Below, in pieces: positions 2,458-40,978 of a DNA stretch of 64,000 nt (positions within the stretch are counted from its first letter, which is position 1; each line of letters starts with the position of its first letter). The stretch is from Leuctra nigra (taxonomy: Eukaryota > Arthropoda > Insecta > Plecoptera > Leuctridae). The DNA is taken from contig OW203773.1 of the NCBI GenBank assembly GCA_934045905.1, positions 13,751,246-13,815,245 of the forward strand, read 5' to 3'. The position numbers and the translations under genes are program-made. Below the pieces are notes generated by a model that worked only from the letters and a program-made list of their open reading frames with translations, searched no databases and was not told the DNA's origin.

Positions 2458-2648
2458 ATGGCAGCACCCTTTTACACGACGCGATATATACCACAAATTC
2501 CGTCAGCACAAGAGCCAATCCAAGCAGATGTACCGTGTGCCAAAATACAAAAGAAGAAGAGGAAGACGAAGAAGAAGGCAAAAGACGATAATTTGTTCAC
2601 GAGAATGGGCTGCGCGTTTAAACAGAGTTTTAGCAACTTATCAGCGAG
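2458..2648 (+). CDS. Gene A exon 1 (start codon, Lys-rich N-terminus)
   Basis: Starts at ATG in a strong context (ccgccATGg) and ends at donor GTAAGT in phase 2 (63 codons plus 2 nt). The last 24 residues align with all of gene B exon 1, sharing the pattern DD..(I/L)F.RM.C......S..NL. The first ~39 residues are absent from B and contain the basic run KKKRKTKKKAK, which resembles a nuclear localisation signal. An acceptor-like TTTCAG ends at 2383, so a spliced 5' UTR is possible. Confidence 0.75.
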
Positions 2649-3388: not shown

Positions 3389-3421
<33 letters not shown>

Positions 3422-6400
3422 CAGAGGTCCGTGTCAAAAGAGTCAAAAGGAGACGATCGCTTCGCTCGCTCAAACAAGTCTCCAATGTTTTAACATGGGT
3501 AGTCATTTAAATTATTAACATTTATAGGTACTTTATTCAAGTGAGCTTCTGAAAGGTGTATAGAGACATTCGTTGACCAAATTGAAGTGGACCCAGGACT
3601 CCAGCCATGGCGCTAAGAATTCGTTATAATTCTTTCAAATAATGATGAAACCATATACCTCGTACAAAAGCATAAAACATATTATGATCGAATATGGAAT
3701 ATTCGATTCCGGTTCCAGTCCCTGCTTTGAAGTGATTACGATATTGATATTGAAGTTCTCTTTAAAAAATGAATGAGACGTAAAACGGCAGGTTAATAGA
3801 TTTGAATTTTCTTGTTTCAGGCTAAGTAGGACGAAGTTGCCCGAAAAACCAGGTAATACAACAGATAAATATAATTAATACTAACTATAACATCAGATAA
3901 ACAATTATATGAAAAGGGCCACTGTAGCCGATAACTAAATATCTTTTGAATATTTAAGTCAAAGTTTCGTGTCGTTCAGATTACGGTTTTATCTATTATT
4001 TGTTTAGGTAACAAGCATTTTACACATTTGAAAACGTTCCGGGTTTCTTGTGGCGCCCAAAAATGACTAATACCACTTGATATAACATGTTGCCAGCTCC
4101 CTCTTACGAAATGTGAAGAAAATAAAATTGCATTTTTACACATTCTTACACATTGCATTCTTACACAGGTGTCTTATTAAGGTGGTGCAAGCGCTAGGCC
4201 GTTTTAGAAAAATGAGAGAGAAAAATTGTTTCATAAGTAGGTGTAACATTGATAGGATGTCACATGATCAGTCTGATTGGATATTAGTAGCACTTTTTCA
4301 TTTTTGCGTCTTGCATTCATTGTTTATTAGGCGCCGGTTATTCAACAAAACGGCGAAAAACTTTGAAATTTCCGATGCAATTGGAGAACATACCCGTGAA
4401 CCAATTGATCTCAAGTTTTAATCATGAATAGATAAAAGACACGCTTATGGTTGTTTTGTTGCACAATTTTGTCAAATTAAATTTCATACGGCTCCCATTG
4501 AGACAAGAAAATATAAAATTTTTCACCAAAATCCACTGATTATTACTAATTAAAGAAGCAAAAAATTTAAAATTTACCAAGGGATTACCCTAAGCTTGTC
4601 TTTCATCTAATCATGGTTAAAATTTCAAATCATTTCGTCAACCCATTTTGTCTCCAATCGTATCCAAAAAAGTGCCTGCAAAACGCGGCAAAATCACTCG
4701 CTTAATGCCCTCTTTCAACAATTCACATTCCTCGACCTCCTTCAGCTCCTCCTCACCAGTTCTTCAACCAGCGCCCACCTCAAGACGATGAGCCACCGGA
4801 TTTACAACGTCGTCCGCAGTTATACCAGCGCCCTGGACAACAAGCGTTATCTTCAAGACAACGCGAACCAAGAGCAACATCGACCGAGAATCCGCCGTGG
4901 CAGATATCAAACCGACTTCCAGAGACACCGGATGGATGTCAGGTAGTACATCGACATCAACCAATATCGCCTACACACTCTCGAAGGCAGGGAGGACACG
5001 GAACTCAAAACTCGTCATCCCGCCGACCTCAATCAACAAGGCATGAACAGCCTTCACCAGGGACACCTCCCGAAACTCCAAAACGCGGCAAATCTGCTCG
5101 ACGCTCACTATTCGCAGCTGCTGGGGCGGCTGGAGTGGCTGGATTGGCTAGAGCGGCTGCAGCCTCTGCAAAGGCGGCGGCGGCTGCGGCGGCACGTCTT
5201 TCGCAGATTGACCAACTGCCTCCACAACTAGATGACTTTCCGCCTTCACAAGTAGATAACGTTTCGCATCCACGAGTAGAACACGTACCGCATCCACGAG
5301 TAGAACACATACCGCATCCACGAGTAGAACACATTCCGCATCCGCATGTTGATCACATACCGCATCCGCATGTTGATCACATACCGCAACCACATGTAGA
5401 TAACTTCCAGGCTCCACATGTAGATAACTGCCCGCCTCCAGATCTAAATGCGGATGAAATATTTGAAATTAGGAAAATAGGAGGATTATTTGGGGCTAAA
5501 AGACCCTCATTTTTTGCAAAAATAAAAAGGAAACTAGACAATCCTGACGCACCGGGTGTAGATCCTCCGTGGAATATGAGAACCCGGGAGGAAGAGTCTC
5601 CAAGGTCATACTTCGAACGTATTGGGCCACCTGACCTCACTGACTGCATTATTACTGTGGAAAACCAACTTCCATCGCCACCTGCTGGTGGACCATCTCC
5701 ACGGCGGCCGAACCATCCTCCAACGCCACCTTCTGGCGAACCATCTCCACGGCGACTGCACCATCCTCCAACGCCACCTTCTGGTGAACCATCTCCACGG
5801 CGACCGCACCATCCTCCAACGCCACCTGCTGGTGAACCATATTCTACTTCGCAGGCAATACTCGACCAACAGCGACAACTATACCTCGATTTCGTTGCGA
5901 AAGGACGTTCCTGTAAGTCTCTTGATAGTTCGATATCTAATAAGTTCTAGTGGTCGTTCCACCCAGCCAAGTCGTACTGTACACTCACACTCACTCAACA
6001 TACCGATAATGCCTAATGAACTGAGGAGCAGACTGACCACTTTTACTGTAAGCAATAACATGGCATTTCCGGCCTACTGGATCTTTTACCAATGTAATTG
6101 TTAACAAAATAGGGCTTTGTACGAGTATTCAGAGCTGTTCAATGAAATAATTGCATAGATTAGAATTAGTTATTAGTTTTATTTTGTCCAACAGATGCTA
6201 TGGTAGGACAAAGTAAATCTAATAAACCATTACAATATATGGAATTATTTTCATTGAACTGTTCTGAATACTTGTACAAAGCATTATTTTGCTAACAATT
6301 ACATTGGTAAAAGATATTGATGAAAATCGATTAAAAAACTCTTCAAGGTCAAACTCTCTTCCCAGCCGTCTTAAAGAGTCATGAAGAGTTCTCTAGTTAG

Positions 6401-9400
6401 AACTATTTCCGACGTGCTCTTACGTTGCCTTATCGCAAATCAGACTTTGTACAAGACTTCTTTCATCGTGGCAAACTCCTTATCTCCTAGTCCACTTTTG
6501 CGGCTTCCCATTCCCAACCTTCGACCAGACGCGTAGGAACTGCTTATATAATGGGGGGGGGGGGGGGCATTTCAGAATGAGAGGGCGTTAGAATCTGTAG
6601 AATATAAAAGTATTTCTGGGATGCTGAACTGTTCAAAATACAAATAACAACCGCAGTCTCTTGAGCCGGAGCCCACAGTTCTACTTTTAGAAAGCTATTT
6701 TCCTGGTACTAATTGTTGTTCTTGTTCTCTTCTCTCAAGGTGATGGACCAGTGGAGGTGCAAGATCCAGGTGAGTTCTTCTAACCTAAATCAACTTTATA
6801 GGACTGATAATCCATGACCTCTGAACCTTACCATTCACTATCTCTCTCTCTTACTTTGTCTCTATAGTACATATTGACAGTGTTTCGTATCAAACAGAGA
6901 CAGGAGCTAATTGAGTGACAAAATGTTTTATTAGTGGACTCTTATGATGATCACATGATTAGTCTGATTGTATAATAGTAACCACTTTTTTATTTTTGCG
7001 TCTTACCATGATAAATGTCCAGGATTTGCACAAACCCGAGCAAAACAATGCCATTTCGGATACGAATGACTCGTCAATGACTCGTCGCCAGACACAGACA
7101 GTCTTTCTCTTCACACTCCCCGCAAAAACACGAATCTAAATTTCCAACAAGATCTCTCAAACTTTCGAGCCTCTTCTCATTCCCTTGCGTTTTTCTAAAA
7201 TGTGTAAATGTTCTTCTTCCGAATAGGTTGGTTCAAAATAGGGCGTCACACCTGCCATCAGTATAAAATACAATGTTACTCGTAATATAATGATATACAC
7301 AAGAAAATGCAAGTCCTGACTCTATTCACTAAACTCACTATAGGTACACTATTCTTAGGTATCTGGATCCGTCTGAATGCAAACAAGATTGTCTTGAAAC
7401 TGCTGAGTTTTCTGCAAATAGCAGGATAGAAATAAAGATTAAATCATCAATTCTGAGGATTCATATTTAAGTCTGGTTGTGGAACTGGGAATCAAAACAA
7501 GCGACGTGCTGATAGCTCTAGAGCTACAATTTGTTAAAATCCTCTTTCAATGACTATGGTGGCGAAGATGGCAACGAAAATGATGTACTTACTACGCTGG
7601 AACCAACACAACAAACTGAAAATCAGCTAGAACTAGGTGGCACATTCAAATTAGCGGATTCACTTTGGAAAGTTTAGGTTGGCAAAGTGTGAATTCAGGT
7701 GGAAGGTCTGGATGGTGCTGCTTAGTTACACCCTAACGGCGTTGTAAGCGTAAATTGAACAGCCTGTAGGTAGCCTTTAACTTACCTTGGCTCTAGAGCG
7801 TGACGCCAGGGATGACTTTGCAGCGTGCGAGAATCATGTGCAGTGACGTCAGCAGTGGCGGACTGGCTATGTCTTATTTTCGCTCCCCAGGACCAAAATA
7901 ATTTTTTACAACAAAAATTCTTCTTACAAAGTTGTATGTTTTGAAGATACATACCTACTCTCTAGTGTGGGGCCTTTACATGTTATAGAACTATTCTTTT
8001 AAGGTGATAAAAGCGCTCGGTTGTATTAGAAATTTGAGAAAGATTTTTTTTTTCAAAAGTGTGTGTAACTTTGATAGGATGTTTACATGATCAGTCTGAT
8101 TGTATCACTTTTTCTGTTTTGATTCGTGTTTTATTAATTAGGCGCCGGTTATTAAACAAAACCTCTCAAAACTATGCAATTTCCGATACGCTTGGACACC
8201 AAACCCGTGAACCAATTGATCTCAAATTTGTATCATGATTAGAAAAAAGACAAACTTAGTGTTATCACTTAGCACATTTTTTAAATTAAATTTCATACGG
8301 TACCCAGAGAGACAAGAAAATATACAATATGTCACCAAAAACAAACTAATTATAACTAGCAAAAAATTACAAATGTATACCAAGTGATAACCCTAAGTTA
8401 ATCTTGTATATCATGATTAAAATTTCAAATCATTTCGTCTACCGATTTTGTCTCTAATCGTATCCAAAAAAGTACCTGAAACAGCGGCAAAATTGCTCGT
8501 CATGTAATGTAATGTTTGTTTGCGCAGGATACCTGCCACTGAGGGAAGAGGTGCTCGTCTTGTTAGACGGAATGGACCCGAACGCGCAGTACTTCCACTA
8601 CCTTCAGGATCTAGCGAGAGAACTCAACCACGGGGACGACGTGCCAAGCTACGAAAAGCTAGGTAATGTGATGAAAATGACTTGAGAGTAGATGTAAGGT
8701 CGCTATAGTGCTTTTTCAAAAGGTTTTACCAATGACCAGAGCCAGTTGTTTGTGGTGATAAAAAAAGCAAAAATTCGTTTTCAACATTATGAAAGCGGTG
8801 AATTGGTGGTGATAATTATGTTAATTTTCGCGATTGGTGTTGAAATGGAAAATAATATGATTTTTGTAAGAATAAGTGTGAAATATGACGCGCGAGCGCA
8901 CCGCAATACTACCAACCCCCCTCTCACTAGCGAGACTCGGCGCGTGCGCATGCGCACCCCTGTTCAAGGTCATGTAGATGCGTCATTCCATGCTCAGCAG
9001 CCAACCAACGGGCACCCCCATACACTCTTTGGCTGGCATTGACAGCTGGCTTAAAACTGTGATTCTTTCTATTTCGTGGTACCTGGAAATTTTCGTAAAA
9101 TATATGCTCGGAATCGGGAAATGTTGCAAAACACGTAGGTTTGGGACAAAATCGCGAGAAAAAGATACTTATATTTGGAATCAGGAGTGTAATAAACGTA
9201 AAGATATGACAGAAAATTCATGTTTCTAAACATTTCGCGTTTATCGTGGAAACCATAAACAACTGGCCCTGCCAATGACTTCCGCTCTATGGATTCGTGA
9301 CTGCTATAGCTGCAGCACTGAATGCTTTTGCCGATGTCTGAGGACGCACTGCATGACAAGATTCTGACAATATAATGATTAATGATATATTGTTAATTTT

Positions 9401-12400
9401 GCTTAATGCCACGGTCTGTCTTCATATTTATAACCGTCCGGTTTCCCTGCAATCTTGTCAGTTGTAAGACGATCTCAGCAGGTCGCGTGAAGAATTTGAA
9501 CAGGTCGGTATTGTTTGTCACCAGACATCGACGACAGTCTCGCGAATCCCCTTAAGATGAAGTCAATGGTTTTATGAAAGATGTATCTTCACACCATAAA
9601 ACACAAGACTACGTCTAAAAAAAAATCCGACCATTTAAAATAATATGTGAAAGAAACTCATAAAAATGACAGATCGTGTCGAAAAAGAAACAAGATGCTT
9701 GGAAAAGAGTTCAAATTTTCAAAATTTGCGTGGGCTACGCCCCGGACTTGCATGTACTCATTGGTTCTAACCAGGGCTCCCAAGTGGTCACTATTTTCAC
9801 TAAAAGTCATTTTTTGAGCCAGGTCAATAAAAATAATTTTTTTCATGATTTATAGTCATTTGGTCATTAAAAGTCATTTTTTTTGTCATGGAAGTAAAAA
9901 TTGTCTTAAAATTGTGTACAAAACGCATAAAAAGGCACAAAATTTGTTCCTGAAATTCAAAATTTTCCCGGGGCTGTTCGCCCCGGACCCTTGTTGTGTT
10001 GGGGGCCCTCTCCCCAAACCCCCCATTGTGTTCATAAGCAAATATGGTTCCCCAGACAATCGCCAATTGTTTGCACACTTATTAAAATTATCTACTGGCT
10101 GCGATTTGATTTTAGTTGAACGATAATATATCGAAGTGATTTTTGAAGCATTGCTTAGGTAAAATAACTCATTTTTAATGAATAAAGGATAGATGCAACA
10201 CCATTTGCCAATCTCGTTTTTAGAATCGTCATTTTGATGCTTTATATTCTGACCCCCTCAATTATAATTTCAGAAATCATTCATTACTAAGTCAAATGAT
10301 ATAATTTCTTTATTTTATTGAAAAACGTCGATTTACTTAGGTCATTTTTTGGTAATTTATTTCTTCCTAAAAGTCATTAAAACTCACTTTTTTTGAAGGT
10401 AGAAACTGTTGGGAGCCCTGCCTACTTAAACCTCTTACACATTTATAACTTACATTTGCCAAAAATAGCACAAATGACTATAATAATTTCATGTCCTCCA
10501 CTGTCTTACTTAAAAATATTAATAATGACCGGCCTCTTCCGAAATTTTCATCCTGAATATTCCCTTGGTATTTCAGTATAAAATTAAAATTGGGAAACTC
10601 AAGTTTTCATCAAAATCTTCATATTGGTGAAAATTAAACTGAAACATCTTCTCGTTGAATAAGATTTCAAATAGTTCCAATCATATTGAAAATTTGCATG
10701 GCCTTTTGGGTCAACATCATACTCATAATAAAACTTTTCAGTCAAATCGGCTAAAATTTGTCGACTTATCTTTGAAATTCAGCTATCAAACATTTAAAAT
10801 GGGATTTCACACTGGGTCGCAAACCGTGGCAGGAAGTGTTCGGTCTGAGCATGCGCAGTAAATAGTATCTGACTCTGCACATGCGTAGATTGAGCATGTA
10901 TAATTCCAGCCATGGTTTGTTCACTTACTTTGACTATGGGTGCATACCGTATTTGGATCCAAACGCCCAGTTTCCCTATCCTTTAACATTGTGACGTAAC
11001 ACCTGGGCGTGACCTTGAGTCGAATCGTGGTCGAATGAATGAAAATAGAGTAATCACAACGCCCGACCTCTTGAGCTTGGGCATTATGGGTACTGGTTTG
11101 AGCTCGTTTGTTGACGCGGCAAGTTGATTTAACCCGTAAATCCTATGGTGACGTCATCGCCCAACTCCACAAATATTGGAATGCACCCTATATTATGTAG
11201 CCAGCTTACTTTATGCCTTGACCGCTCCAACTCATGTTCGATCATCTTAGTTATTTCTCCGCAGATGTTGCACGTATCGGTGCTCGCTCATCAACTCGTT
11301 GCAATGAGCGTTTTCCTAGTATTACTAAGTAATTCTATTTTTTGCATGTTCTAGTGGCCGATGCAGACACGTCGGGCATTCCAGTCCGTATGTATACCCA
11401 CTTTCAATAGTTCCTATAGAAATCTTCGGAAATCTTAGAAATCTTAGGAAAATCTTTGGAAATCCTTTATATAGACCTAGATTCTAATTACAATATTCAA
11501 AAGTCTTGTAAATCTTTAAAGATGTTTAGAAATCTTTAAAATTCCTCGGAAATCCCCACAAAATCTGATTAAAATATTCAAAAATCTATAAAAATCTTTA
11601 GAAATTTTGGAAATCATAGGACATCTTTGGAACGCGGAAAATATTCAAAATCTTTTGAAATATTTAGACATTCGTACAAAATCCCAGAAAATCTAATGAA
11701 AATATTAAAAAATTTCGGAAAATGTCGAAAAATCTTTAGAAGTCTTCAAAAATCCCAGGATATCTTTAGAAATCTTCACAAATCTAAGAATTCTTTGGAA
11801 ATCTTGGAAATCCGAAATCATGTGTAGCTCAAATCTATTAGTTGATAGATCCTCTTTCTTTGATCTCTAATCTCTTTGGATTTAATCCAATAATCAGTGA
11901 TAATTCAGTGTTTACCAACGTGTTAGAGTAAAACTTCAATCAAGAATAAAACAAGTATAATCAGTAAGGGGCCAAATCATATAAAATACTAGTGAACTAA
12001 TATGATAATTTACCCATTGAGCCGTCGTTCACAATTGAGATAATATATGGAGCTGCGCCATCAAACAAACGAATTTCCCGAATCACAGGGTCTGAAAAGA
12101 CTTCACTTCAGCCAATGTTATCGGTATAGGAGTAAACGAACCTTGCCTTAGTAGTATGAATGTAGTAATGATGCCCATGAATCTTAACCCAGCCGTCTTA
12201 ATGATTGTGTTTCACTTTTCAGTGAAGTTCGCCGCGTCGCTTCTCGAGGACTTTCATGACTACGCCCATCGAAACTACGATCACCTGACTATTCCAGAAG
12301 CAAGTACGTGGAAATAGAGAACCAGTTTTACCTAGTTGACTTGTTCTTTTTTGTGTCTGGGGCTTAACGTCGTCGCACTGTTCTGCAGCGAGGCTATGGC

Positions 12401-29200: not shown

Positions 29201-32200
29201 CTTTTTCAGTGAGACTTGCTGTGGATCTTCTGAAGAAGTTCTATAAAATGGGCTATGCGCGTAACGACCATTACTCAAACAAAGTGGAATTGTCAAGTAC
29301 GTGGAGATCAAATAACTTTGAGTGATGTTTTAACGAACAGGGGAGCCAACTCTGGAAATTCACGTTTTGAAACCGTTTGCATTGTATACAACTTGAAACA
29401 GTTACAACTATTGCTTAGCCTTCAACTTTTTTCCTTTTTAAAAATCGACGATAACGTACCTATGGCTGCCAAGTTAACAGGTAACATACGTAAATCTAGG
29501 TAATTTTGCTGGATGGCAGCCAATTTGTCAATAGTATTTTAAATTTAGATATAGTATAAATTTAGTATAATTTTTTTTTTAGATTTTTTTTTAGATATAT
29601 TTTAAATAGTAAAAGGAAATATTAAAAAGAAAAACAAAAGTGGTGAAATTAAATACTTATTCTCTCTTGATTCAATGTCCCTCATTTTTAGGGGAACGAG
29701 TTCCTTTTTAGGAACTTTTTGGGAACTTTGTTCATTTATTTTTAAAGGAATTTTGGAACTAAAAAGTTCCTTTAGTAAGGAACTTTGGAACTTATTTTAA
29801 GTTATTTTTTAAGTTACTTTCAAATAGAAATAGTATCTTATGAAATGTGTTGCACAGATTTTATAACGAATAATAACCATTTATGCTGGCTTCCTAAATA
29901 ACATGATTTCTGAAAATATAATACTTGATCGCTTTGCTCACTGATCGAGAGCCAGTAATTAAAAAAGTATCCGGGTTGTTTATGGAGGGCATTGTAACTT
30001 AAAAAAAGTTCCTTACTGGTAACTTTCTAGTTCCTTTTTTTGAAAGGAGCAGGCACTGGCACTAGTTCCTTTTTTATCAAAGGGGCTGGAACTGGAACTG
30101 GAACTAGCCCAACACTGCCCTATTCTTACTTCGTGCAGGATGTAAACTGCAAATAATGGAAGAAATGGCGGCCAAGCTGTTCATCACCTTCATAATGTAC
30201 AAGAAGGAATTGCGCGAAACGTACGGACAGTGGAATTGCTACCCCGAGATCGGGCAAAGTAATCCCTTGGCCGTCGTGCGCCGAGATGACGATGGAACGT
30301 ACGTGGATCTGAGATTCGGCTTCGAGAGGTTGATGCAGGCTTACAGGAGCAGGATCACAGAGCTGGAGTGGATGGACCCGAGGAAGAGGAGGCAGCAGTT
30401 GGATATGCTCGGCATAGGTAAGTAGGTCACTCCATAGAGTTGGACAACATCCGGGTGTTTTCAAAAATAGTTCAGTGGGGTTTTTAACCCTACGTTTTTT
30501 ACAGATTTTTTTGTATAGTGTTTTGAATTAATAAAATTTTAAGTAATTTTATGCAGCGTGTTTAGACTACAGATACCGCTGCAAAAAGTACAGACAGAGC
30601 CACCTAAGCTGTGGGAAGGAAGCTTACCTTTTGGCAAGGCGTCCAAGTCGCTGCAGTTATATGTTATGTTGCTGCACATATTACGCATTATCACTCCTTA
30701 AAATTTACACAAGTTTATCTAATGTTTATTCGCCTACAAAATATTAATAATAAAGTGTTCACAATTCCACTGAATCTGATCACAATAGTAATTTGCGCGA
30801 CTTGGTTCTGCATCCGAAATATTTTGAGTACATTTGTTGACAAGATCGGTTGCTAGGTCACGGCCAATGAGAAATGAAACAGTTGAAGATCATTACCACA
30901 AATGTTGCTTATTTCTTTCACTCGTGGCGCTGGGGGTTTGAACACTCGGTGCCTATACAATATATTGATTGAGTATCCCTTAATTGTAGCTAGAAATTAA
31001 TGGAAAGAGTTCTGACCTGAGTGGGATTCCTTAGTACATTAGATCAGGGACTTATTAGATCTTAACCTTATTAATATTCACATAATATCGATGTATACCC
31101 AATCACTTTTCTTTATTAATTAGAGAATTGTTTGACATTTAAATAAATAATGGTTTAATATCATAACTTATTTACTTTTTTCATGATTCTTTTTTTTGTA
31201 ATGTATAATGTAATGTAATGTAATAATGCAATTGATCACATGAAATGATGTTGCAGATCGGCAAGCCGAGGTTCCATCAGCTGACGAAGGTAAACTAATC
31301 AACATTTTATGCCATGACTCTTTACTGCTTGGTTCTCGTCATTGTCTCAATTCGCGAACCGTCACGAAATCCAGAAATATTATTCTGTTGTAAGCATCAG
31401 TAAATATCAGTCAAAAACTTTTAAAGTAAGTTATTCTGGGATTTGTTGAAAGACACTAAAGTTTTACTTGGTTATTCATAAACCATTCTCCAATTACATA
31501 CATTTTAAAATACCAAGTACCAAACTTAAACAAAAAATACCCCCATACCGGCATAACTTGATTCCGTTACAGAACTACTAAGATTTCATAAGATTTAAAT
31601 TTGTTTAACTGCACACCTCCCAGGTCAATCGTGAAACCTATCGATCTGAAATTTTGCACACACTCAAGGGGGGCAACGGTCAGAAACTAAATTTTACCAT
31701 AACTACATATCAAACTATTATTATCTGTAAGACTTATGAGAAGGTACCAATCGGGTTGTGATATTGAGAGCAGCAAATCGGAAAACGCGATTTTAATCGA
31801 AAGTATCCAAAGAATTTTAGTCCCATAAGGAATAAGCTGGAAGCAAAATGTCTATTGGGAACGTAGGAGAACCAAAATCGATAGATATAAAAGAAGCTCT
31901 GCTACATATAAATGGGAGTGTATACTTCATTTTATCTCTTCCAAATTTTCTGTAAATTAAACCGTTTAGCTGCAAATAAATATAAAAACAAATCGCTACT
32001 GTTTTACACACCAATAAGGTTCCATATTTTTAGTACATAAGGTACATTCCTGCAAAACCTCCCTCTCTGTAACTGGACCCAGTTTGTTTAGACTAAAGCT
32101 CTTGGTGACACTTGAAATAGTAATAAAGTGGCCATAAACTAAACAATTTCATGCATCATCAAAACACAACACATTAAATATATATTACAGTCTGCTCAAA

Positions 32201-35200
32201 GAATGTTGATACCATAAGACAAATCCCATGTGAACTATAATATGCAATACAGACAATAATAATTATTAATTATTACAATACCGTTGGCACATTTGCACTT
32301 ATCAATTATCTTTTAACATGACAAGATAAAATAATGGTATTTTTTCATATCCTGACTGTTGTAGCCCTTTAAGGTGTTATGTGTATTATTGCAGTCAAAC
32401 TAAATCACATAACATACCTTAATGTATACTATGCGTTACGTCATCAAATTCATGACGTCCGGGAATATATTCCATGAGAGTACGTACCTTAATACATCTC
32501 CTCAAAACACCGGTGTGTAATGGAGAAAACTACAAGACAGCATGCAATACGTGATTAACACAATTAATACACGTAAAGAAACAAACTGAACTAATGATAA
32601 CATGCAACACGTCTGCAATCAAGAATGTATCTTCACAATCATCTTCTGAGCCAACGGAACAGGTTGGGTATTCAACAACTTGTATTCCGGAGGCCCGGGT
32701 TCGATTCCCGCGGCCGTCCTTCCTGACTGGGTTTTTTTCGTGGTTTACCCTCAGTCGACAGGCAAATGCTGGGAAGGTACCCTACTTATAGGCCACGACC
32801 GCCTCCTTCCACCTTCCATCCTTACCTACTCTTCACCGTCATCTCCCAATCATCATCATAATCATTCATCCGTCGCCATTAGCCTAGCTGCAGAACAATG
32901 CGACGTTAAGCCCCAGACAAAAAAATCTTCATTGCCAACTATAAATATAGTCTGGTTCAAAAGTTGTAGCGATATTTCGGAAATATTTTCTTAAATTTTA
33001 CCTTTTAGTACAGCCGACTCTTAGGCCCGGTTGCACCATGTCCCGATAAAGTTAGCGGTAGGATTTATCGGCTGAAACCATGGCAACAGCCAATGAAACA
33101 CAGCCATCTAGACCGCTAAAGTTCACTTTAGGCTAAAGTGAGCTTTATCTTTCTAATCGGGACACGGTGCAACCGGGCCTTAACCATTTTGTGTTTCATA
33201 AGAGATAGCTTATTGCTTGAGGGGTAAGTCGATTGTCACAACCGTAAGCCTTTCTCTATTCACTGTAATAATGAAATAATATTCTCCTATAGCGATGGTG
33301 GCAATGACAGCGGATGCTGACAGATTCATGGAGACAGCCTACGAACAAGAGGACCTGATGGTACCAGAGTTAGGTGAGTTTGTGTTGTGAAAGCTACTTT
33401 TAAAATGTAGCAGTGTTACAGTTACAGTTAAATGCTCAAAATTCTAAGAGTGTTACAGCTACAGTTACTGGGGTTTCAAAAGTAACACCGATACAGTAAC
33501 TTTTTAAGCGACATGTATCAGTGTTAAGTTACAGTGAAAGTTCGTTCACGTTAAGAATATTTCTGACGTTTTAGTCATCACGTCGTTCATTGGTCGTTCA
33601 CTAGAACACTGCCCTGTCAATGGCACGACTTTCTTCTTTGTATTATTGAAATTGTGTAAATTATGTCAAATACACAGTTTTTAATAGTATTAAATATTAT
33701 AAAATTTCAATAAATTGATTTATTTTTATCTACAGTCGTATTATACACATTTTTTGATTATTATATTGATATTTACATGTTTAGGGGGTTATTCTAAAAC
33801 ATACAATTCCGGATTCGGCCCGTATACGATTCACGGCCATATGGATTAACATTGCAACCGAATCGTATTCGGGCCGAATCGCGAATTTTAAGTTTTATAA
33901 TAACCCCCCAAGTATACGTTCGCTTAGACTATACGGTAGTACACGGCCGCCATTACGGCTCGATATTCTAAACGTGAACGAACTTTATACTTTCATATTG
34001 ACAGAAGTTACTTTCACAGATATTTGAAATTTACTAGAACTTTTCCTTTATTTCTTTTTTACAATGAAGGGATTGAATTACGTTTTGAATGATAACTGAA
34101 AATAGTGAACAGAGCTGACAGGACAAGAAAAAAATTCTAGTCCAGAGGCATTTTAGAAATATGTTGTGTTCGTATGCCTTCTAGAGCAACTTTTTACATT
34201 TGTTTTACTGATTTTGACATTTTACATTATTCAGAGATGAATTAAATGTGACATGTTACATTTCACTAAGGCCGGGTAGGACCAAAATTGGATTAAGTTA
34301 ATTATCGATAGTTAGTGGAAGTTAGTGAATCTTATTGGCTGTGGAATTCGCGCCAACTGGATTCATTGGTTAACTGCTCACTAACTATCGATAGTTAGCT
34401 AATCCAAAGTTGGTCCTACCCGGCCTAAAGTTACTCAAAATTGTAACGGGATAAAAGTTACAGTTACTTTTTTCAAAAGAAGAAAGTAATTGAATACAAT
34501 TGCAATTATTTCATTTTTAAGGTAACATTATTACAGTTACTTTTACTTGAAAAAAGTAGCATGTTACCAGTAACATGCTACTTCACAACAATGCAATAGG
34601 GAAGTGAAGTTAAGTTAATAGATTTTAGAATAAAAAATATTTTATGAAAGTTGAGATGTTGTTGAAGACAGATGTGGTATTATTTTTGTTGTGTGATGAA
34701 TAGTTTTCAAGGAACGAGTTTACAAAGTTTGGTAGATTGTAGCTGTCCATGAAATACAATTTGACGTCACACACCGAGTCGGGCCGTATAGACAATGTTA
34801 GCCAGAGCCAGTTTTATGCATCCCGTAACACAGGGAACACGGTGTGTGACGTACAGCTTGTTTTTGCAGAGGAGTGAAATGTCGAAAACTAATAAATTAG
34901 TTTATAGGAAATATATTAATTAAAAAAATGTAATAACATTTCACATTGCTTTGAGGCTATTCTGTAAATAAACAAAATATAATCTCAACATTCACCTATT
35001 CCTCATTCATGCTGTCGACAACTCAACTGATTCCTATTTGTAACCCTGCATTCTCTGTTGGTTTGTGACAGAGGAACGAATAGATTTTCTGGAGAATCGT
35101 CTGCGAGAATTCCGGAGAGCGGAGAGGAATCGTCCAGCAGATGATTCTCTGCCATACGACTACGAGAAGCTAGTGAGAGCGATGAAGCGGAAGATCTGTC

Positions 35201-38200
35201 AACTCAAGAAGTTGCTCGGTAAGCTTAACATAACCTCAATATATAGGCATCCTGCATCAACTCGCATCAACTCGCATCAACTCACATCAACTCGCATCAA
35301 CTCACATCAACTCGCATCAACTCGCATCAACTCGCATCAACTCGCATCAACTCGCATCAACTCGCATCAACTCGCATCAACTCGCATCAACTGGCATCAA
35401 CTCGCATCAACTCGCATCAACTCAAATCAACTCGCATCAACTCGCATCAACTCGCATCAACTCGCATCAACTCGCATCAACTCACATCAACTCGCATCAA
35501 CTCGCATCAACTCGCATCAACTCGCATCAACTCGCATCAACTCGCATCAACTGGCATCAACTCGCATCAACTCGCATCAACTCGCATCAACTCGCATCAA
35601 CTCGCATCAACTCGCATCAACTCGCATCAACTCGCATCAACTCGCATCAACTCACATCAACTCGCATCAACTCGCATCAACTCGCATCAACTCGCATCAA
35701 CTCACATCAACTCGCATCAACTCGCATCAACTCGCATCAACTGGCATCAACTCGCATCAACTCGCATCAACTCACATCAACTCGCATCAACTCGCATCAA
35801 CTCGCATCAACTCGCATCAACTCGCATCAACTCACATCAACTCGCATCAACTCGCATCAACTCGCATCAACTCGCATCAACTCGCATCAACTCGCATCAA
35901 CTCGCATCAACTCGCATCAACTCGCATCAACTCACATCAACTCGCATCAACTCGCATCAACTCGCATCAACTCGCATCAACTCGCATCAACTCGCATCAA
36001 CTCGCATCAACTGGCATCAACTCGCATCAACTCGCATCAACTCACATCAACTCGCATCAACTCGCATCAACTCGCATCAACTCGCATCAACTCACATCAA
36101 CTCGCATCAACTCGCATCAACTCGCATCAACTCGCATCAACTCGCATCAACTCGCATCAACTCGCATCAACTCACATCAACTCGCATCAACTCGCATCAA
36201 CTCGCATCAACTCGCATCAACTCGCATCAACTCACATCAACTCGCATCAACTCGCATCAACTCGCATCAACTCGCATCAACTCGCATCAACTCGCATCAA
36301 CTCGCATCAACTGGCATCAACTCGCATCAACTCGCATCAACTCACATCAACTCGCATCAACTCGCATCAACTCGCATCAACTCGCATCAACTCGCATCAA
36401 CTCACATCAACTCGCATCAACTCGCATCAACTCGCATCAACTCGCATCAACTCACATCAACTCGCATCAACTCGCATCAACTCGCATCAACTGGCATCAA
36501 CTCGCATCAACTCGCATCAACTCACATCAACTCGCATCAACTCGCATCAACTCGCATCAACTCGCATCAACTCGCATCAACTCACATCAACTCGCATCAA
36601 CTCGCATCAACTCGCATCAACTCGCATCAACTCGCATCAACTCGCATCAACTGGCATCAACTCGCATCAACTCACATCAACTCGCATCAACTCGCATCAA
36701 CTCGCATCAACTCGCATCAACTCGCATCAACTCACATCAACTCGCATCAACTCGCATCAACTCGCATCAACTCGCATCAACTCGCATCAACTCGCATCAA
36801 CTGGCATCAACTCGCATCAACTCGCATCAACTCACATCAACTCGCATCAACTCGCATCAACTCGCATCAACTCGCATCAACTGGCATCAACTCGCATCAA
36901 CTCGCATCAACTCACATCAACTCGCATCAACTCGCATCAACTCACATCAACTCGCATCAACTCGCATCAACTCGCATCAACTCGCATCAACTCGCATCAA
37001 CTCGCATCAACTCGCATCAACTCGCATCAACTGGCATCAACTCGCATCAACTCGCATCAACTCACATCAACTCGCATCAACTCGCATCAACTCGCATCAA
37101 CTCGCATCAACTCGCATCAACTCACATCAACTCGCATCAACTCGCATCAACTCGCATCAACTCGCATCAACTCACATCAACTCGCATCAACTCGCATCAA
37201 CTCGCATCAACTGGCATCAACTCGCATCAACTCGCATCAACTCACATCAACTCGCATCAACTCGCATCAACTCGCATCAACTCGCATCAACTCGCATCAA
37301 CTCACATCAACTCGCATCAACTCGCATCAACTCGCATCAACTCGCATCAACTCGCATCAACTCGCATCAACTGGCATCAACTCGCATCAACTCGCATCAA
37401 CTCACATCAACTCGCATCAACTCGCATCAACTCGCATCAACTCGCATCAACTGGCATCAACTCGCATCAACTCGCATCAACTCACATCAACTCGCATCAA
37501 CTCGCATCAACTCACATCAACTCGCATCAACTCGCATCAACTCGCATCAACTCGCATCAACTCGCATCAACTCGCATCAACTCGCATCAACTCGCATCAA
37601 CTGGCATCAACTCGCATCAACTCGCATCAACTCGCATCAACTCGCATCAACTCGCATCAACTCGCATCAACTGTTACATTGAAATTACACGTTCAAAATA
37701 CGTTTTCATACATTTCAACTATATTTAAGTATAACAGACTCATTTAAAGTCCTGTAGTTTGCAACTCCAGTCCAACAATGAGTTTTCAATTTTAGGTCAT
37801 CAGAGGATGAACAAAACTTTAACATTGGAGGTATAGGAAAATAAGCTAGAATTTGGATTATAACTTAAAAAAGCTCACGTTGGTATTGTTTTCAATTTTT
37901 TTTCTGATAGTATGTCCATATGTCTACCATTATAAAAAAAAATCGTTCAAATCTGTCGACTTAAAGCCTAAAAATGACACGATTCTCTTTTTCCGCCATA
38001 AGATAACATGGGGGAAACAAATCAATTTATCTCAGAAACTGGACACGCGAATTGTTTAATTTTTTCAGGGATTGAGTTTTGCATGATTATCAGTAAGTCA
38101 CCAAAATTTCAAGTAAATCGGAAAAATTGAGGTTATGATCGTTCTACCTTAAGTTAACAAGTTACCCAGCAAACACAGAGTGTCAGATTTGTGCCGGGCC

Positions 38201-40978
38201 GATGCCTACCAACGGCGCCGGTCCGGTGTCGCACGTTGACACTGGCCCGGCAAAATTGTGTCCGCCGGGCCGCCTCCTATTTGTTATCGGACAGCGGACA
38301 CCAAGCAGTCACATATCCGCGTCTATTCCGTCACGAATATGACACTCACTAAAAGACTAGATGAGCGTACTACACTGGCCCGGCATCAAAACGATACGTT
38401 TCGAACACTATTCTGACACATTGCGGACAGAATTCTGATATCTTTCGGACGCCATTCTGATACATATCGGACGCCATTCTGTTACATTTTGGACACCATT
38501 CCGTTACATATCGGATACAATGCGGATACCATTCCTGCATTGAATCCCGCCCCCTTCCCCCACCCCCTTCCTGCTAAATATTCATAATTTGATTATTTAT
38601 TGGTAATTAATTAATTGATTAATTTTTTAAATTATTATTTCAGGGAAACGAAGGGAGGAAATAATTAATTTTGATTTAAACGAATAATTTATTTATTGGT
38701 TTTAGAATTGACACAAATATACAAAAATTACGAACGTAAATTCAAGTCTGATGCGTTTCGCAGCCAAGGCACCAGCCGCAGACATCATCTTTCTTCATAC
38801 AGCTGTGTAGGATCTTATTTCGCAGAGCAGCAACTAAAACACAAACAATTTTCATACAATAAATAAAAATTGAAAACTTGTCTTGATGATGAACGAACAC
38901 TTTAACTACCAACGATCAAGATAATCACAACTTAAAATACTTTCTTTCCCCCAATGCCCCCCGTGTTGATAGTTTTTAAATTAATCATCGTACATAAAAC
39001 ATTCATTCATTGTTCATAAAAATAAGTGAACGTAAGTGTGACATTTTACTTCTAATTTAACTAGGTAATAGTTGATCTATTTTCAAAAATAAAAAACGAA
39101 TACATTAATTGTGCTTAAAAGTTAAATCTAGGTGATCGTGCACTGCACATCAATTTCTCAATTATTGATAATTTTGATATATCGATTTTTAAGCGCAGGT
39201 TCTCTATCCCTTTCTATTGTCAGTGGTCAAGGCAACCTTGAAGGGAAGCAAAGAACTCCCCCTACCCGTCCCCCGCTCCGGGGGGGGGGGGGGGTTGAAA
39301 TATGCTTGAAATATATGTTGAAATATGTTAATATGCTTACTAATACTTTATTTTTAAGAGACGTAGAATTATTGTCCGGTTTTTAATTTCTAAGATGTTA
39401 CATAATTTGAATGGCATTAAATTAAAATGTTATTAAAATTGGGTAGAACAAAATTGAATTAACATATTAATACCTTTAAATATGGAGATCTGTACAACTA
39501 AAATTATTTTTATGTTTCCGTAATGTAATTATACTACCCTCTTGTACAGAATCTGCTGCAAACAACTTAAATTATTTGGAAAGAGAGAGAACTGTGAGTG
39601 GAGGGACGCGTAATGCGGGACGTTTTTACATGCTGTTAGTTCATTTAGAGACACAGTTACATTATTGCATTACGTGTTAAGAAATTGGTACTTACCCTGC
39701 AATTAACAATTGTCTTCTGGTGGGTAGCAGTTGATTAGCAGTTGTATCTTTGCTTCTTGTAGTGTAGCGTCAAAAATCAAACTTGTAGTCAAGATAAAAA
39801 CCGTTGGACTGCTTGAATGACCTCCCTCCCTCACCCTCACGAAACCGAGCTCCCGAAGGCCGAACCGAAAAGACACGAACGATTCGTTTTATTTTGAAAT
39901 AACTAACACAAAACAATTAATTTAAATTTCATTGTGCGATTTTCTAAAATAACTGTTGATGTTTAATAAACTATATGAAATAATCTTTATATTTATATAG
40001 CTTCACCTTGATAATTGATGTGCTGAATAGTGCAATTTAAAGATAATTGATTCTTGATGTCCTTTTTGTGTCGGTTTTGCACTGGGCCAGCATCGTGCGG
40101 ATACAACAAATTTTAAACTGATTTAAAACAAATATGAATGGATAAAACTTCAATCAAAAGCTATAAAATGTATTAGAAATACAAAATCTACTCTATTTTG
40201 CAAAATCAGACTGTTTCGTTGCAATATGAGGCATATGTCTTGATTTTTGTTTCACTATTAAATTCTTCTAAATGATGCATGAAAATGCTATAGGCCGCCA
40301 TAGTTTGTTTTGGGAAATTAAGAGTGTCATATTTGTGTCCAACGAGTGTCGGGCCGGTATCAGTCTGACGGCGATGCGACGGTACGTGAAAAACATGTTC
40401 GAAACGCGCGCGCTCCCGGCGACATCAGCCCGGCACAATGTGGACACCGTGCCGACATATCCGCAGAGTGTCCGCCAGTAGACATCGGCCCGACACCGAC
40501 ATGGTGACACCGCGCGGACATATCTGAATAGTGTCTGGCAAAAGACAACGGCCCGACACCGGCATTGTGACACACGCGGATATATCTGAATAGTGTCAGG
40601 CAGTGCGGCACTGGCCCGATAGCAGAACACTGTCCGAGTGCTGATATATCCGCTTGTCAGTAGTGGGCCGGCATCAAATCGGTATCTACATGCGACGCAC
40701 CATCGCCGTTGCCGACACTCCGTCATCGTTATGATACAGGTCCAGCATAGAACTGACAGTCGTGTGTTTGCTGGGTAAAGTTATTATTTGTTAGAAATCA
40801 TCGAAGTTATTATAGCAGCGGAGATTTCGAAATGTTAACTTCCTTGTGTGTTAAACTATAACCTTGGCAATGATGAGTGATGACGTATTATTGTTTGATT
40901 GCAGCGGCGAACCGGAATGTGCCGAACCGACAAAACATCAGGATTCTTGAGAGTTTCCCAGACAGTGACGAGGAATAA
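20185..40978 (+). CDS. Gene B: 12-exon microexon gene, paralogue of gene A
   Basis: Exons: 20185-20261, 21294-21325, 22460-23191, 24501-24545, 25125-25262, 26863-26895, 29210-29296, 30139-30417, 31257-31289, 33293-33373, 35072-35218, 40905-40978. The sum is 1758 nt, exactly 585 codons plus stop. All introns are GT-AG, the first phase 2 and the rest phase 1, matching gene A exon for exon. The protein starts at the conserved block (no N-terminal extension), has a Pro/Gln-rich repeat region in exon 3, and ends PDSDEE. It has no visible signal peptide or known domain. Its introns are longer than in A, holding a (TTC)90 tract, a 2.4-kb 10-bp minisatellite and many MITEs. The end of the terminal exon is amplified into an 18-unit array. 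Intact reading frame and splice sites argue that both copies are or recently were functional. Confidence 0.84.
20481..20750 (+). repeat. (TTC)90 microsatellite in intron 1 of gene B
   Basis: 270 bp of uninterrupted TTC, followed by a C/T-rich tail to about 20950. It yields long poly-Leu, poly-Glu and poly-Lys open frames that are artefacts. Confidence 0.97.
20950..21065. repeat. AT-rich AAATTTAA repeats
   Basis: Repeated TTTAAATTTAATTTAAAT in both orientations in intron 1 of gene B. Confidence 0.7.
21294..21325 (+). CDS. Gene B exon 2 (32-nt microexon)
   Basis: Acceptor TATGTTCCAG, donor GTAAAC. Phase 2 in, phase 1 out, identical in length and phase to gene A exon 2. Encodes LSRTQVNLQE. The first eight nucleotides (GCTAAGTM) are the same as in A. 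Confidence 0.82.
21404..21780. mobile_element. TTAA MITE family 1, intron 2 of gene B
   Basis: GACGGCTGGGTTGTGAG ... CTCACTACTCAGCCCTC, 377 bp, TTAA at both ends (21400-21403, 21781-21784). Confidence 0.88.
21830..22200. mobile_element. hAT-like fragment with GGGCTATGCGCCCCGGACCC
   Basis: The block at 21900-21990 matches those at 9960 and 43350 (GGGCT.TGCGCCCCGGACC followed by a C-rich inverted piece). The ends are not defined. Confidence 0.45.
22460..23191 (+). CDS. Gene B exon 3 (732 nt, Pro/Gln-rich repeats)
   Basis: Acceptor TTTCCTTCTCAAG, donor GTAAGT, phase 1-1, open throughout. Begins DIELQELAIA then a run of about 11 prolines. Next come about five copies of a ~28-residue repeat containing QQPVAQPARQNAMRRPQPQ (22510-22990), in a higher-order period of 168 bp. 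An Arg/Pro/Ser-rich tail follows, with RRRQGPRTPPSSPRHFSPER. The alternative donor GTGAGG at 23152 is also in phase 1. The repeats have no sequence relation to those of gene A exon 3. Confidence 0.78.
23192..24500. other. Intron 3 of gene B; no feature identified
   Basis: AT-rich, without clear repeats. A frame continuing exon 3 stays open to 23313 past the donor. Confidence 0.35.
24501..24545 (+). CDS. Gene B exon 4 (45-nt microexon)
   Basis: Acceptor CTCTTCCTTCTAG, donor GTCAGT, phase 1-1. Encodes C-YEGEEGEHTEEQDP, the Cys split by the intron. It shares the ending QDP and the split Cys with gene A exon 4. Confidence 0.8.
24610..24965 (+). mobile_element. 5S rRNA-derived SINE, copy in intron 4 of gene B
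   Basis: CAGATCACCGAAGTAACATT and GCGGTTGGATGGGTGACC correspond to 5S promoter sequence. The body matches the gene A copy (CAGTCTCTCGACGGCGCGGG). A palindromic element is inserted near its 3' part. Confidence 0.72.
24846..24940. mobile_element. ~95-bp palindromic TA-flanked MITE
   Basis: TGGTCGGTGACAGGCAAA ... TTTGCCTGTCACCGACC, flanked by TA. A related copy at 25787-25883 lies inside another MITE. The element sits in the 5S-SINE where the gene A copy reads CTCACTTGTGGAGCC. Confidence 0.7.
25125..25262 (+). CDS. Gene B exon 5 (conserved YLPLREEV segment)
   Basis: Acceptor GTGTGTTCAG, donor GTAATGTG, phase 1-1, 138 nt. Encodes DYLPLREEVYVLLEDMDPND and a Tyr-rich stretch ending IPSYDDL. About half the residues match gene A exon 5, and the donor context GTAATGTG is the same. 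Confidence 0.86.
25384..25540. mobile_element. 157-bp MITE, TIR AGCCTCATGCTCAAAAGAA (copy in gene B)
   Basis: Same length and about 90% the same bases by eye as 16594-16750. It lies in intron 5 of gene B, whereas the A copy is in intron 10, so the two are independent insertions. Confidence 0.75.
25605..26084. mobile_element. TTAA MITE family 1 with a nested palindromic MITE
   Basis: Left TTAA at 25601-25604; right end GCCGTC followed by TTTA (target site mutated). Enlarged to 480 bp by a TA-flanked palindromic element at about 25787-25883. Confidence 0.8.
26334..26715. mobile_element. TTAA MITE family 1, intron 5 of gene B
   Basis: GAGGGCTGAGTAGTGAGCG ... CTCACTACCCAGCCGTC, 382 bp, TTAA at 26330-26333 and 26716-26719. 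The centre has inverted GGCACTAAACGTCTGTAGGAC pieces. Confidence 0.9.
26863..26895 (+). CDS. Gene B exon 6 (33-nt microexon)
   Basis: Acceptor TCATTGTTTCAG, donor GTAAGT, phase 1-1. Encodes EQVMRSQNNP after a split Arg codon. Both splice sites are strong. The A counterpart is proposed at 11355-11387 with equal length. Skipping it would not disturb the frame, so it could be an alternative exon. Confidence 0.68.
27120..27215. repeat. AAAACATTCTTAAAACATTC short tandem repeat
   Basis: About 95 bp of irregular 10-14 bp repeats in intron 6 of gene B. Confidence 0.6.
27409..28245. mobile_element. hAT-like element containing a TTAA MITE
   Basis: Ends CAGGGACGGCGCCAGG and CCTGGCGCCTCCCTG. The flanking 8-mers do not match well. 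The TTAA MITE at 27491-27872 is nested inside. GGTGGGC pieces near both ends are inverted. Confidence 0.6.
27491..27872. mobile_element. TTAA MITE family 1, nested
   Basis: GACGGCTGGGTAGTGAG ... CTCACTATTCAGACCTC, 382 bp, TTAA at 27487-27490 and 27873-27876. Confidence 0.88.
28483..29152. mobile_element. Long-TIR foldback element, intron 6 of gene B
   Basis: Arms of about 170-200 bp: TTCCGCTCGATTGGAGTGCC onward and its inverse ending GGCACTCCAATCGAGCGGAA. A poly(G) run (28352-28373) lies just outside. The arms reach within 60 bp of the exon 7 acceptor. Confidence 0.7.
29210..29296 (+). CDS. Gene B exon 7
   Basis: Acceptor CATTCTTTTTCAG, donor GTACGTGG, phase 1-1, 87 nt. Encodes RLAVDLLKKFYKMGYARNDH then YSNKVELS. 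The same position, phase and donor context as gene A exon 7. Confidence 0.8.
29690..30115. repeat. GGAACTTT/AAAGTTCC repeats in intron 7 of gene B
   Basis: Many inverted and direct copies of GTTCCTTTTTAGGAACTTT-like words, ending about 25 bp before exon 8. Confidence 0.55.
30139..30417 (+). CDS. Gene B exon 8 (core GTYVDLR...ELEWMDPRKRR exon)
   Basis: Acceptor TACTTCGTGCAG, donor GTAAGT, 279 nt, exactly the length of gene A exon 8. The second half has GTYVDLRFGFERLMQAYRSR then ELEWMDPRKRRQQLD. The first half (CKLQIMEEMAAKLFITF and on) is largely different from A. This split between frozen and fast-changing halves is a hallmark of the pair. Confidence 0.88.
30418..31256. other. Intron 8 of gene B; no feature identified
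   Basis: AT-rich without a supported gene. A short TAATGTAATG repeat occurs near 31200-31225. Confidence 0.3.
31257..31289 (+). CDS. Gene B exon 9 (33-nt microexon)
   Basis: Acceptor ATGATGTTGCAG, donor GTAAAC, phase 1-1. Encodes DRQAEVPSADE. The A counterpart is 21 nt with the same donor; both end in Glu plus a G. Confidence 0.65.
31290..32640. other. Intron 9 of gene B, first part; no gene
   Basis: A phrase of the dispersed repeat (ATCTGAAATTTTGCACAC) occurs near 31645. Otherwise featureless AT-rich DNA. Confidence 0.3.
32658..32927 (+). mobile_element. tRNA-derived SINE, copy 2
   Basis: B box GGTTCGATTCCC, body and tail GTTAAGCCCCAGAC followed by A7 in the + orientation. The A box region is degraded (CAGGTTGGGTATTCAAC). 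Confidence 0.8.
33024..33179. mobile_element. Harbinger-like MITE with TTA duplication
   Basis: GGCCCGGTTGCACCATGTCC ... GGACACGGTGCAACCGGGCC, 156 bp, flanked by TTA on both sides. Confidence 0.82.
33293..33373 (+). CDS. Gene B exon 10
   Basis: Acceptor TATTCTCCTATAG, donor GTGAGT, phase 1-1, 81 nt. Encodes AMVAMTADADRFMETAYEQE then DLMVPEL. Its C-terminal half matches gene A exon 10 (ME.AY..EDLM.PE). Confidence 0.84.
33374..33560. repeat. GTTACAGTTAC repeats
   Basis: Degenerate CAGTGTTACAGTTACAG words, continued after the inserted MITEs at 34435-34600; probably one older element split by insertions. Confidence 0.5.
33783..33909. mobile_element. Palindromic MITE, GGGGGTTATTCTAAAAC ends
   Basis: GGGGGTTATTCTAAAACATA and its inverse ending TTATAATAACCCCC, about 125 bp, with inner inverted GAATCGTATTCGGGCC / GGCCCGTATACGATTC. 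Confidence 0.7.
34270..34425. mobile_element. Harbinger-like MITE with TAA duplication
   Basis: GGCCGGGTAGGACCAA ... TTGGTCCTACCCGGCC, 156 bp, TAA on both sides (34267-34269, 34426-34428). Confidence 0.82.
35072..35218 (+). CDS. Gene B exon 11 (basic helical segment)
   Basis: Acceptor GGTTTGTGACAG, donor GTAAGC, phase 1-1, 147 nt as in A. Contains RLREFRRAERNRPADDSLPY then DYEKLVRAMKRKICQLKKLL. The reading frame runs on through the following intron for about 840 codons because the 10-bp repeat there has no stop; this is discussed as a finding. Confidence 0.86.
35249..37672 (+). repeat. 2.4-kb minisatellite of CATCAACTCG in intron 11 of gene B
   Basis: About 242 copies of a 10-bp unit with variants CATCAACTCA and CATCAACTGG. 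The CTGG variant lies at irregular steps (80-300 bp). The step series 180-160-(150)-80-150 occurs twice between 36311 and 37601, pointing to duplication of blocks of several hundred bp. No frame has a stop codon. Confidence 0.96.
37673..38163. other. Intron 11 of gene B between minisatellite and TIR element
   Basis: No feature identified. Confidence 0.3.
38164..40776. mobile_element. 2.6-kb TIR element, ACCCAGCAAACAC ends
   Basis: ACCCAGCAAACACAGAGTGT at the left and its degenerate inverse ACAGTCGTGTGTTTGCTGGGT at the right. Near each end are GC-rich degenerate repeats of CGGACACC / CATTCTGATACATATCGGA type (38200-38530 and 40330-40720). A C-run and G-run lie at 38560 and 39281. No transposase ORF; target duplication unclear. 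Confidence 0.6.
40905..40978 (+). CDS. Gene B exon 12 (terminal exon)
   Basis: Acceptor TTGTTTGATTGCAG, 74 nt to TAA as in A. Encodes ANRNVPNRQNIRILESFPDS then DEE and stop. The intron end is conserved with A (GATGACGTATTATTGTTTGATT before the acceptor). From 40942 on, the exon is the first unit of the 18-fold array. Confidence 0.86.

What the first reader, a model, noticed from the sequence alone, without database searches (positions are those of the whole stretch)
2458..40978. Tandem pair of 12-exon microexon genes of an unrecognised family
Seen: two + strand genes can be chained from conserved exons with the same order, the same splice phases (first intron phase 2, all later introns phase 1) and identical lengths for four exons. 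Both chains stay in frame to a shared C-terminus. Exons of 21, 30, 32, 33 and 45 nt are interleaved with 0.3-5.7 kb introns. Known: bicycle effector genes of gall-forming aphids and microexon genes of schistosomes use symmetric phase-1 microexons. Inferred: a fast-evolving lineage-specific family with similar architecture. Unlike bicycle proteins it has no visible signal peptide and no paired Cys-Tyr-Cys motif.
Basis: partly seen in the sequence, partly recalled or inferred. Interest (0 to 1): 0.88.

Follow-up and report, generated by a model that had tools for sequence, protein, structure and literature searches.

The report
Modular phase-1 exon gene family cluster
Two neighbouring genes are real and belong to a larger, fast-changing family of genes on one chromosome; their exons are cut so that blocks can be copied or skipped without breaking the protein, but, unlike the two known gene families they resemble, these proteins show no secretion signal.

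Summary
The two 12-exon genes look real. With GT-AG junctions they read stop-free as 752 aa (g1) and 585 aa (g2); intron 1 is phase 2, the other ten phase 1. Six exon pairs match collinearly by tblastn, best E 5e-24. The window lies in a held 536-Mb genome. One search with g2 found relatives at six further loci, all on the same contig, plus a weak last-exon match. One relative (C) was modelled completely: 19 exons, 645 aa, same phase pattern; its tandem copy D over 17 exons. C and D carry two copies of the block E4-E8 that g1 and g2 carry once; E6 is 33 nt in all six modelled blocks. In five of six last exons seen, the stop codon lies inside AATAAA. No signal peptide was found. dN/dS is 0.51 and 0.62. 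No Pfam family reaches cut-off and no PDB match is significant; the protein collection seems poor in animals, so lineage restriction is untested. No transcript evidence. Most likely: intracellular helical modular proteins; function is inferred only.

The parts
2458..2648 (+). g1 E1, start ATGGCA, lysine-rich stretch, donor phase 2
   Evidence: matches g2 E1 (E 1e-4)
3821..3852 (+). g1 E2, 32 nt
   Evidence: (rank 1 of 2)
4746..5912 (+). g1 E3, Pro-rich low-complexity exon, 1167 nt open; acceptor chosen among three in-frame sites
6740..6769 (+). g1 E4, 30 nt
   Evidence: rank 1 of 4; acceptor flank rank 1 of 97
8528..8662 (+). g1 E5, 135 nt
   Evidence: E 3e-12
11355..11387 (+). g1 E6, 33 nt; weakest exon inside the pair
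   Evidence: rank 5 of 10; same-length exon in C and D
12223..12303 (+). g1 E7, 81 nt
   Evidence: (rank 1 of 4)
12734..13012 (+). g1 E8, 279 nt, core ELEWMDPRKRR
   Evidence: E 5e-24
15329..15349 (+). g1 E9, 21 nt
   Evidence: rank 2 of 7; acceptor 1 of 135, donor 1 of 147
15866..15934 (+). g1 E10, 69 nt
   Evidence: E 5e-4
17273..17419 (+). g1 E11, 147 nt, predicted helical hairpin
   Evidence: (E 2e-9)
18284..18357 (+). g1 E12, stop codon inside AATAAA
   Evidence: (E 4e-6)
20185..20261 (+). g2 E1, start ATGGCA, donor phase 2
21294..21325 (+). g2 E2, 32 nt
   Evidence: rank 1 of 3
22460..23191 (+). g2 E3, Pro/Gln-rich exon with 168-nt tandem repeat
24501..24545 (+). g2 E4, 45 nt
   Evidence: (rank 3 of 5)
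25125..25262 (+). g2 E5, 138 nt
26863..26895 (+). g2 E6, 33 nt
   Evidence: rank 1 of 8
29210..29296 (+). g2 E7, 87 nt
   Evidence: rank 1 of 12
30139..30417 (+). g2 E8, 279 nt
31257..31289 (+). g2 E9, 33 nt
   Evidence: (rank 3 of 10)
33293..33373 (+). g2 E10, 81 nt
35072..35218 (+). g2 E11, 147 nt
40905..40978 (+). g2 E12, stop codon inside AATAAA
40942..42341 (+). 77-nt unit, about 18 copies: end of g2 E12 plus the 3' flank, tandemly amplified

Best explanation
g1 and g2 are two members of a clustered multigene family that grew by tandem gene duplication and by duplication of an in-frame exon block (E4-E5-E6-E7-E8). Because nearly every intron interrupts the codon after its first base, blocks can be copied or skipped without a frameshift. 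Shown from sequence: gene models, phases, paralogues, internal block duplication, constrained divergence, stop codon fused to the poly(A) signal. Inferred: each protein is intracellular, with a short N-terminus, a Pro/Ser/Arg-rich linker that looks disordered, one or two helical blocks of about 180 residues, a helical hairpin (E11), and an acidic tail that ends [ST]-x-E-E in five of six genes and fits a CK2 site (consensus recalled). I think it most likely acts as a helical adaptor or scaffold whose binding surface diversifies by block duplication and sequence drift; the ligand and tissue are unknown.
For: Stop-free models g1, g2, C complete and D over 17 of 19 exons. Nine of 20 C12 rows with E<1e-3 lie outside the window, all at 14.60-14.93 Mb. 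C and D are collinear duplicates; their blocks are 64% (first) and 80% (second) identical between the genes but 32-38% between first and second copies, so the block duplicated before C and D split. The top donor site is phase 1 in 14 of 17 internal-exon anchors in relatives. Relative B, absent from the E5 training set, was found by the E5 profile at E 8.5e-12 in the expected order. Stop codon in AATAAA in g1, g2, A, B, C. Helix: E11 model pLDDT 85, two helices; E8 model pLDDT 64, 58 of 92 residues helical. No signal peptide by hydropathy in g1 or g2; C and D start MAHRG.
Against: No transcript. The scan that found most C and D exons looked only for phase-1 symmetric exons, so it cannot itself prove the phase pattern. 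The top acceptor is phase 1 in only 13 of 20 anchors. One weak last exon reads AATAAG, not AATAAA. No structure of a whole block: the folding tool takes no spliced protein. No known fold or family supports adaptor function. Location inside the cell rests on simple hydropathy; the most hydrophobic 19 residues of g1, an Ala-rich stretch in E3, reach 1.51, close to a usual membrane cut-off of about 1.6 (recalled).
Confidence: 0.6

Rival explanations
1. A secreted effector family of the bicycle or schistosome MEG type, with a signal peptide on an unseen upstream exon.
For: Same habit of internal exons starting at codon position 2, small exons and internal repetition as bicycle and megacycle genes (PMC9168663 sections 6 and 12). 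Cysteine-free bicycle proteins exist (PMC13041983 abstract). Of 6 weakly hydrophobic ATG frames upstream, three nested ones at 127-136 have a usable phase-1 donor.
Against: No hydrophobic N-terminus in g1 or g2; in the scanned upstream 2457 and 1827 nt the 6 frames above the threshold reach 10-residue means of only 2.06-2.14. Start codons ATGGCA in g1, g2, C and D. First intron phase 2.
Confidence: 0.08
2. A germline or genetic-conflict family (for example gonad-expressed) in which rapid turnover reflects conflict rather than adaptor diversity.
For: Clustered fast-diverging duplicates, dN/dS 0.51-0.62, variable linker, intracellular look.
Against: No expression or mapping data; nothing in sequence points to gonads.
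Confidence: 0.2
3. An ordinary animal gene family already annotated elsewhere as uncharacterised proteins.
For: The protein collection seems poor in animal proteins (control), so known relatives could be missed.
Against: No Pfam family above cut-off for g1, g2 or C; no significant PDB relative.
Confidence: 0.25
4. Decaying duplicates: some or all copies are pseudogenes.
For: Locus A holds two truncated extra E11 copies and only weak E8 fragments upstream.
Against: g1, g2 and C read stop-free from start to stop; dN/dS below 1.
Confidence: 0.05

Closest known systems
Bicycle and megacycle genes of aphids, phylloxerans and scale insects (PMC9168663: abstract and sections 3, 6, 11 and 12 read; PMC13041983: abstract and outline seen)
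   Same: Many small internal exons starting at codon position 2 (intron phase 1), gene family, rapid divergence, internal repetition of an exon block in megacycles.
   Different: No signal peptide found, no CYC motif, first intron phase 2, one long Pro-rich exon in g1 and g2, internal exon means of 199 and 161 nt. No sequence comparison with a bicycle protein was made.
Schistosome micro-exon genes (MEG) (PMC10526429, passages seen)
   Same: Short exons mostly a multiple of three among long introns.
   Different: MEG proteins keep an N-terminal signal peptide, the longest is given as 189 residues and the short exons as at most 81 nt. Here 585-752 aa without a detected signal peptide.
Peptidase M13 N-terminal domain (PF05649)
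   Same: Short helix resembling the E8 core (E 0.0068 for g2 E8; 0.012 for C).
   Different: Far below the curated cut-off (16.3 and 15.5 against 32 bits); PDB M13 chains score E 0.8 with the block profile. Treated as chance.

Membership tests
Bicycle genes | N-terminal signal peptide | tested here: not met
   (g1, g2 and upstream scan, hydropathy only); C and D starts by inspection
Bicycle genes | Internal exons mostly small and starting at codon position 2 | tested here: inconclusive
   Phase met for 9 of 10 internal exons in g1 and in g2; size only partly: 4 of 12 exons <=51 nt, means 199 and 161 nt. The published classifier was not run
Bicycle genes | CYC motifs (many members, not all) | tested here: not met
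   Cys positions of g1 and g2 listed are never two apart
Bicycle genes | Salivary-gland expression | not testable with these tools
   no RNA data
Bicycle genes | Saposin-like fold | not testable with these tools
   spliced proteins cannot be folded here; single-exon models E8 and E11 only
Schistosome MEG | Signal peptide | tested here: not met
Schistosome MEG | Coding exons very short (up to 81 nt) | tested here: inconclusive
   6 of 10 internal exons in g1 and 5 of 10 in g2 are <=81 nt; the rest up to 1167 nt
Death-fold domains (an impression of mine for E5-E7) | Profile similarity to a death effector domain | tested here: not met
   hhalign probability 0.2% against one domain sequence; no Pfam hit
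Peptidase M13 | Score above curated cut-off | tested here: not met

The most novel reading that the evidence does not exclude
An intracellular counterpart of bicycle and MEG families: a clustered family whose frame-neutral exon blocks duplicate within genes, and could be skipped combinatorially, to diversify intracellular binding proteins. In g1 and g2 nine consecutive exons (E3-E11) are each frame-neutral, so 2^9 in-frame isoforms are arithmetically possible. That would show that the symmetric phase-1 small-exon architecture is not tied to secretion or parasitism.
Probability: 0.2. Interest if true: 0.8.

Novelty: new variant of a known kind. Interest (0 to 1): 0.58.

Why it matters
Genes with many small exons of one phase are reported as rare (PMC9168663, section 6), and the two such families compared here are secreted proteins of plant or animal parasites. 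A family without a detected secretion signal but with the same habit, caught with one and two copies of the same exon block in genes of one cluster, would let one test whether this exon design is a general route to fast protein diversification. It also shows that such relatives can be found by exon phase and block structure.

Tried and rejected
Internal repeat inside g1/g2 alone: in 11 comparisons with two-sequence profiles the best was reached by 10 of 300 shuffles, not convincing. With profiles enlarged by relatives, of 6 comparisons E7-E10 was reached by 4 of 200 shuffles, E8-E11 by 1 of 200, E5-E11 by 0 of 200, and the other three by 90, 162 and 116 of 200; the idea that E9-E11 is a worn-down block is suggestive only. 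The block duplication in C and D is separate and clear.

Death-fold reading of E5-E7: rejected. M13 peptidase relation: not significant. Fold searches of the E8 and E11 models: no match with E <= 0.001. Virus origin: no relative in viral contigs. NCBIfam: 0 families; PHROGs: three weak rows, best E 0.091; Rfam: 0 at gathering score. A SINE string for naming the species: 0 matches in viral contigs. CpG ratio 0.90-0.99 in the genes and 0.96 in the window, uninformative. Text search for three peptide strings of E8: 0 papers. Listings of paper searches showed no title or abstract matching this family, in an open-licence library only.

Full report
OBSERVATION. The window is eukaryotic, repeat-rich DNA. 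g2 (20185-40978) reads as 585 aa without a stop through 12 exons. g1 (2458-18357) reads as 752 aa once the E3 acceptor is set at 4746, one of three in-frame choices. Every junction is GT-AG; intron 1 is phase 2, introns 2-11 are phase 1. Five exon lengths agree exactly. BLASTP of the two proteins gives 47% identity over 293 aligned positions, E 4e-67.

HOW SURE IS EACH EXON. Because E3 to E11 are frame-neutral, an open frame does not test them one by one. E1, E5, E8, E10, E11 and E12 are supported by tblastn between the genes. For short exons I enumerated splice-bounded open candidates with a matrix trained on the other exons: ranks for g1/g2 are E2 1/1, E4 1/3, E6 5/1, E7 1/1, E9 2/3. Intron-flank identity places E4, E9, E2 and E7 first on at least one side and gives E6 nothing; it also ranks some exons that are certain by homology low, so it is a weak test. 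E6 gains support from relatives, below.

THE FAMILY. After five unanswered requests the own genome answered: window = C12:13751246-13815245 of 536,196,549 bases in 144 contigs. Searching it with g2 gave 32 matches at E<=1. Of 21 with E<1e-3, 20 lie on C12 (11 in the window, 9 at 14.60-14.93 Mb) and one on C3 matches residues 32-87, a low-complexity stretch. Of the 11 weaker rows, one is E8 of relative D and ten match residues 4-92. Loci: A and B (- strand), C and D (+ strand, a tandem duplicate), E and F seen only as short matches, and a weak further last exon at 14695830-14695774 (E 0.0043). That is eight clear loci with g1 and g2, nine with the weak one. No second protein search of the genome was answered, so this is a lower bound, and the confinement to C12 holds for this one search.

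RELATIVES C AND D. Comparing C with D, I listed conserved symmetric phase-1 exon candidates: 28 rows, of which I used 14 and dropped 14 nested or overlapping alternatives. That scan admitted phase 1 only, so it is not evidence for phase by itself. E1, E2, E5', E11 and E12 of C were placed by me from the alignment or from profile hits. The resulting C gene has 19 exons, 645 aa, no internal stop, intron 1 phase 2 and 17 introns phase 1; D is open over 17 of 19 exons. The independent phase test is, which listed splice sites of all phases around 20 homology anchors: the best donor is phase 1 in 14 of 17 internal-exon anchors (misses: two truncated E11 copies in A and E8' of C), the best acceptor in 13 of 20.

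EXON-BLOCK DUPLICATION. C and D each hold E4'-E5'-E6'-E7'-E8' followed by E4-E5-E6-E7-E8; g1 and g2 hold one such block, and B shows single E5, E7 and E8 matches. In the six modelled blocks E6 is always 33 nt, E5 is 135 nt in five and 138 in one, E7 is 81 nt in five and 87 in one. Block identity between C and D is 64% for the first and 80% for the second copy, but 32-38% between first and second copies, so the block duplicated before the C/D gene duplication. Sixteen columns are invariant over six blocks, among them the E8 core R-x2-E-L-x-W-M-x-P. This also supports E6 as an exon from outside the window pair.

SHARED 3' END. In g1, g2, A, B and C the gene ends GAG GAA TAA with the stop codon inside AATAAA; the weak sixth end reads AATAAG. 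The 3' flanks of g1 and g2 share 43 identities in a 61-column alignment whose last stretch is overhang. In g2 this end, 77 nt long, has been amplified to about 18 tandem copies.

EVOLUTION. g1 against g2 without E3: dS 0.77, dN 0.39, ratio 0.51. C against D over 17 exons: dS 0.27, dN 0.17, ratio 0.62. This is fast but constrained; two-sequence ratios cannot show positive selection. Constraint is uneven between g1 and g2: E5, E10, E11 and E12 are kept best, E8 less, and E3, E6, E7 and E9 least.

WHAT THE PROTEIN LOOKS LIKE. Hydropathy finds no signal peptide in g1 or g2 and no good signal exon upstream; the most hydrophobic 19-residue stretch is an Ala-rich piece of g1 E3 at 1.51. C and D begin MAHRG. 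The E11 pair folds as a helical hairpin at pLDDT 85; E8 is mostly helix at pLDDT 64 with a low-confidence loop, too weak for a useful fold search. The acidic end fits a CK2 site in the six ends seen (consensus recalled).

DATABASES. No Pfam family reaches its cut-off, nothing significant in NCBIfam or PHROGs, no significant PDB sequence, best E 0.13, no protein at E<=1 in the 5.8-billion collection within the tool's word and length limits. The control matters: a LINE endonuclease fragment from the same window, of a kind common in animal genomes (recalled), found one distant protein at E<=1e-5. That suggests the collection does not test animal homologues.

COMPARISON. Bicycle genes share the phase-1 small-exon habit and, in megacycles, internal repetition (PMC9168663 sections 3, 6, 11 and 12), but many carry a signal sequence. 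Schistosome MEGs keep a signal peptide (PMC10526429 passages). So this resembles those families in gene design, but is not a member on the features tested.

VERDICT. The finding is real by sequence evidence and larger than first described. Architecture and family are well supported; function is inferred; expression, species and taxonomic range are open.

Noticed in passing
53563-53518 and 45802-44733, minus strand: Two-exon gene model for a 371-aa Gly/Arg/Glu/His-rich repeat protein that looks secreted: 46-nt exon with a hydrophobic start, 7.7-kb phase-1 intron, 1.07-kb exon. No Pfam match.
   Followed up: partly
40942-42341: 77-nt unit, about 18 copies; copies carry the last 11 codons of g2, its stop and poly(A) signal. 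The g1 3' flank also resembles the far end of the array, so the array probably grew inside an ancestral single copy.
   Followed up: partly
47410-52010: Broken LINE with a SAP-domain first reading frame, endonuclease and reverse transcriptase fragments, interrupted by ATATCGAA-type repeats.
   Followed up: no
about 12340-12640, 32660-32990, 52720-53014: Three related tRNA-like SINE copies; ARAGORN calls one as tRNA-Thr.
   Followed up: no
about 5994-6392, 21397-21803, 25592-26104, 26318-26742, 27435-27889, 46753-47186: Copies of one repeat, in both orientations, in introns of both genes and elsewhere; a similar sequence lies between E4' and E6' of C and D.
   Followed up: no
35254-37672: 10-nt minisatellite GCATCAACTC, about 242 copies, inside g2 intron 11.
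   Followed up: no
L024 (C12:14605225-14604816): Relative A has two extra truncated tandem copies of the start of E11 just upstream of the full E11.
   Followed up: partly
L040 (C12:14765593-14765697): Relative D has an extra partial copy of the start of E8' directly before the full exon.
   Followed up: no
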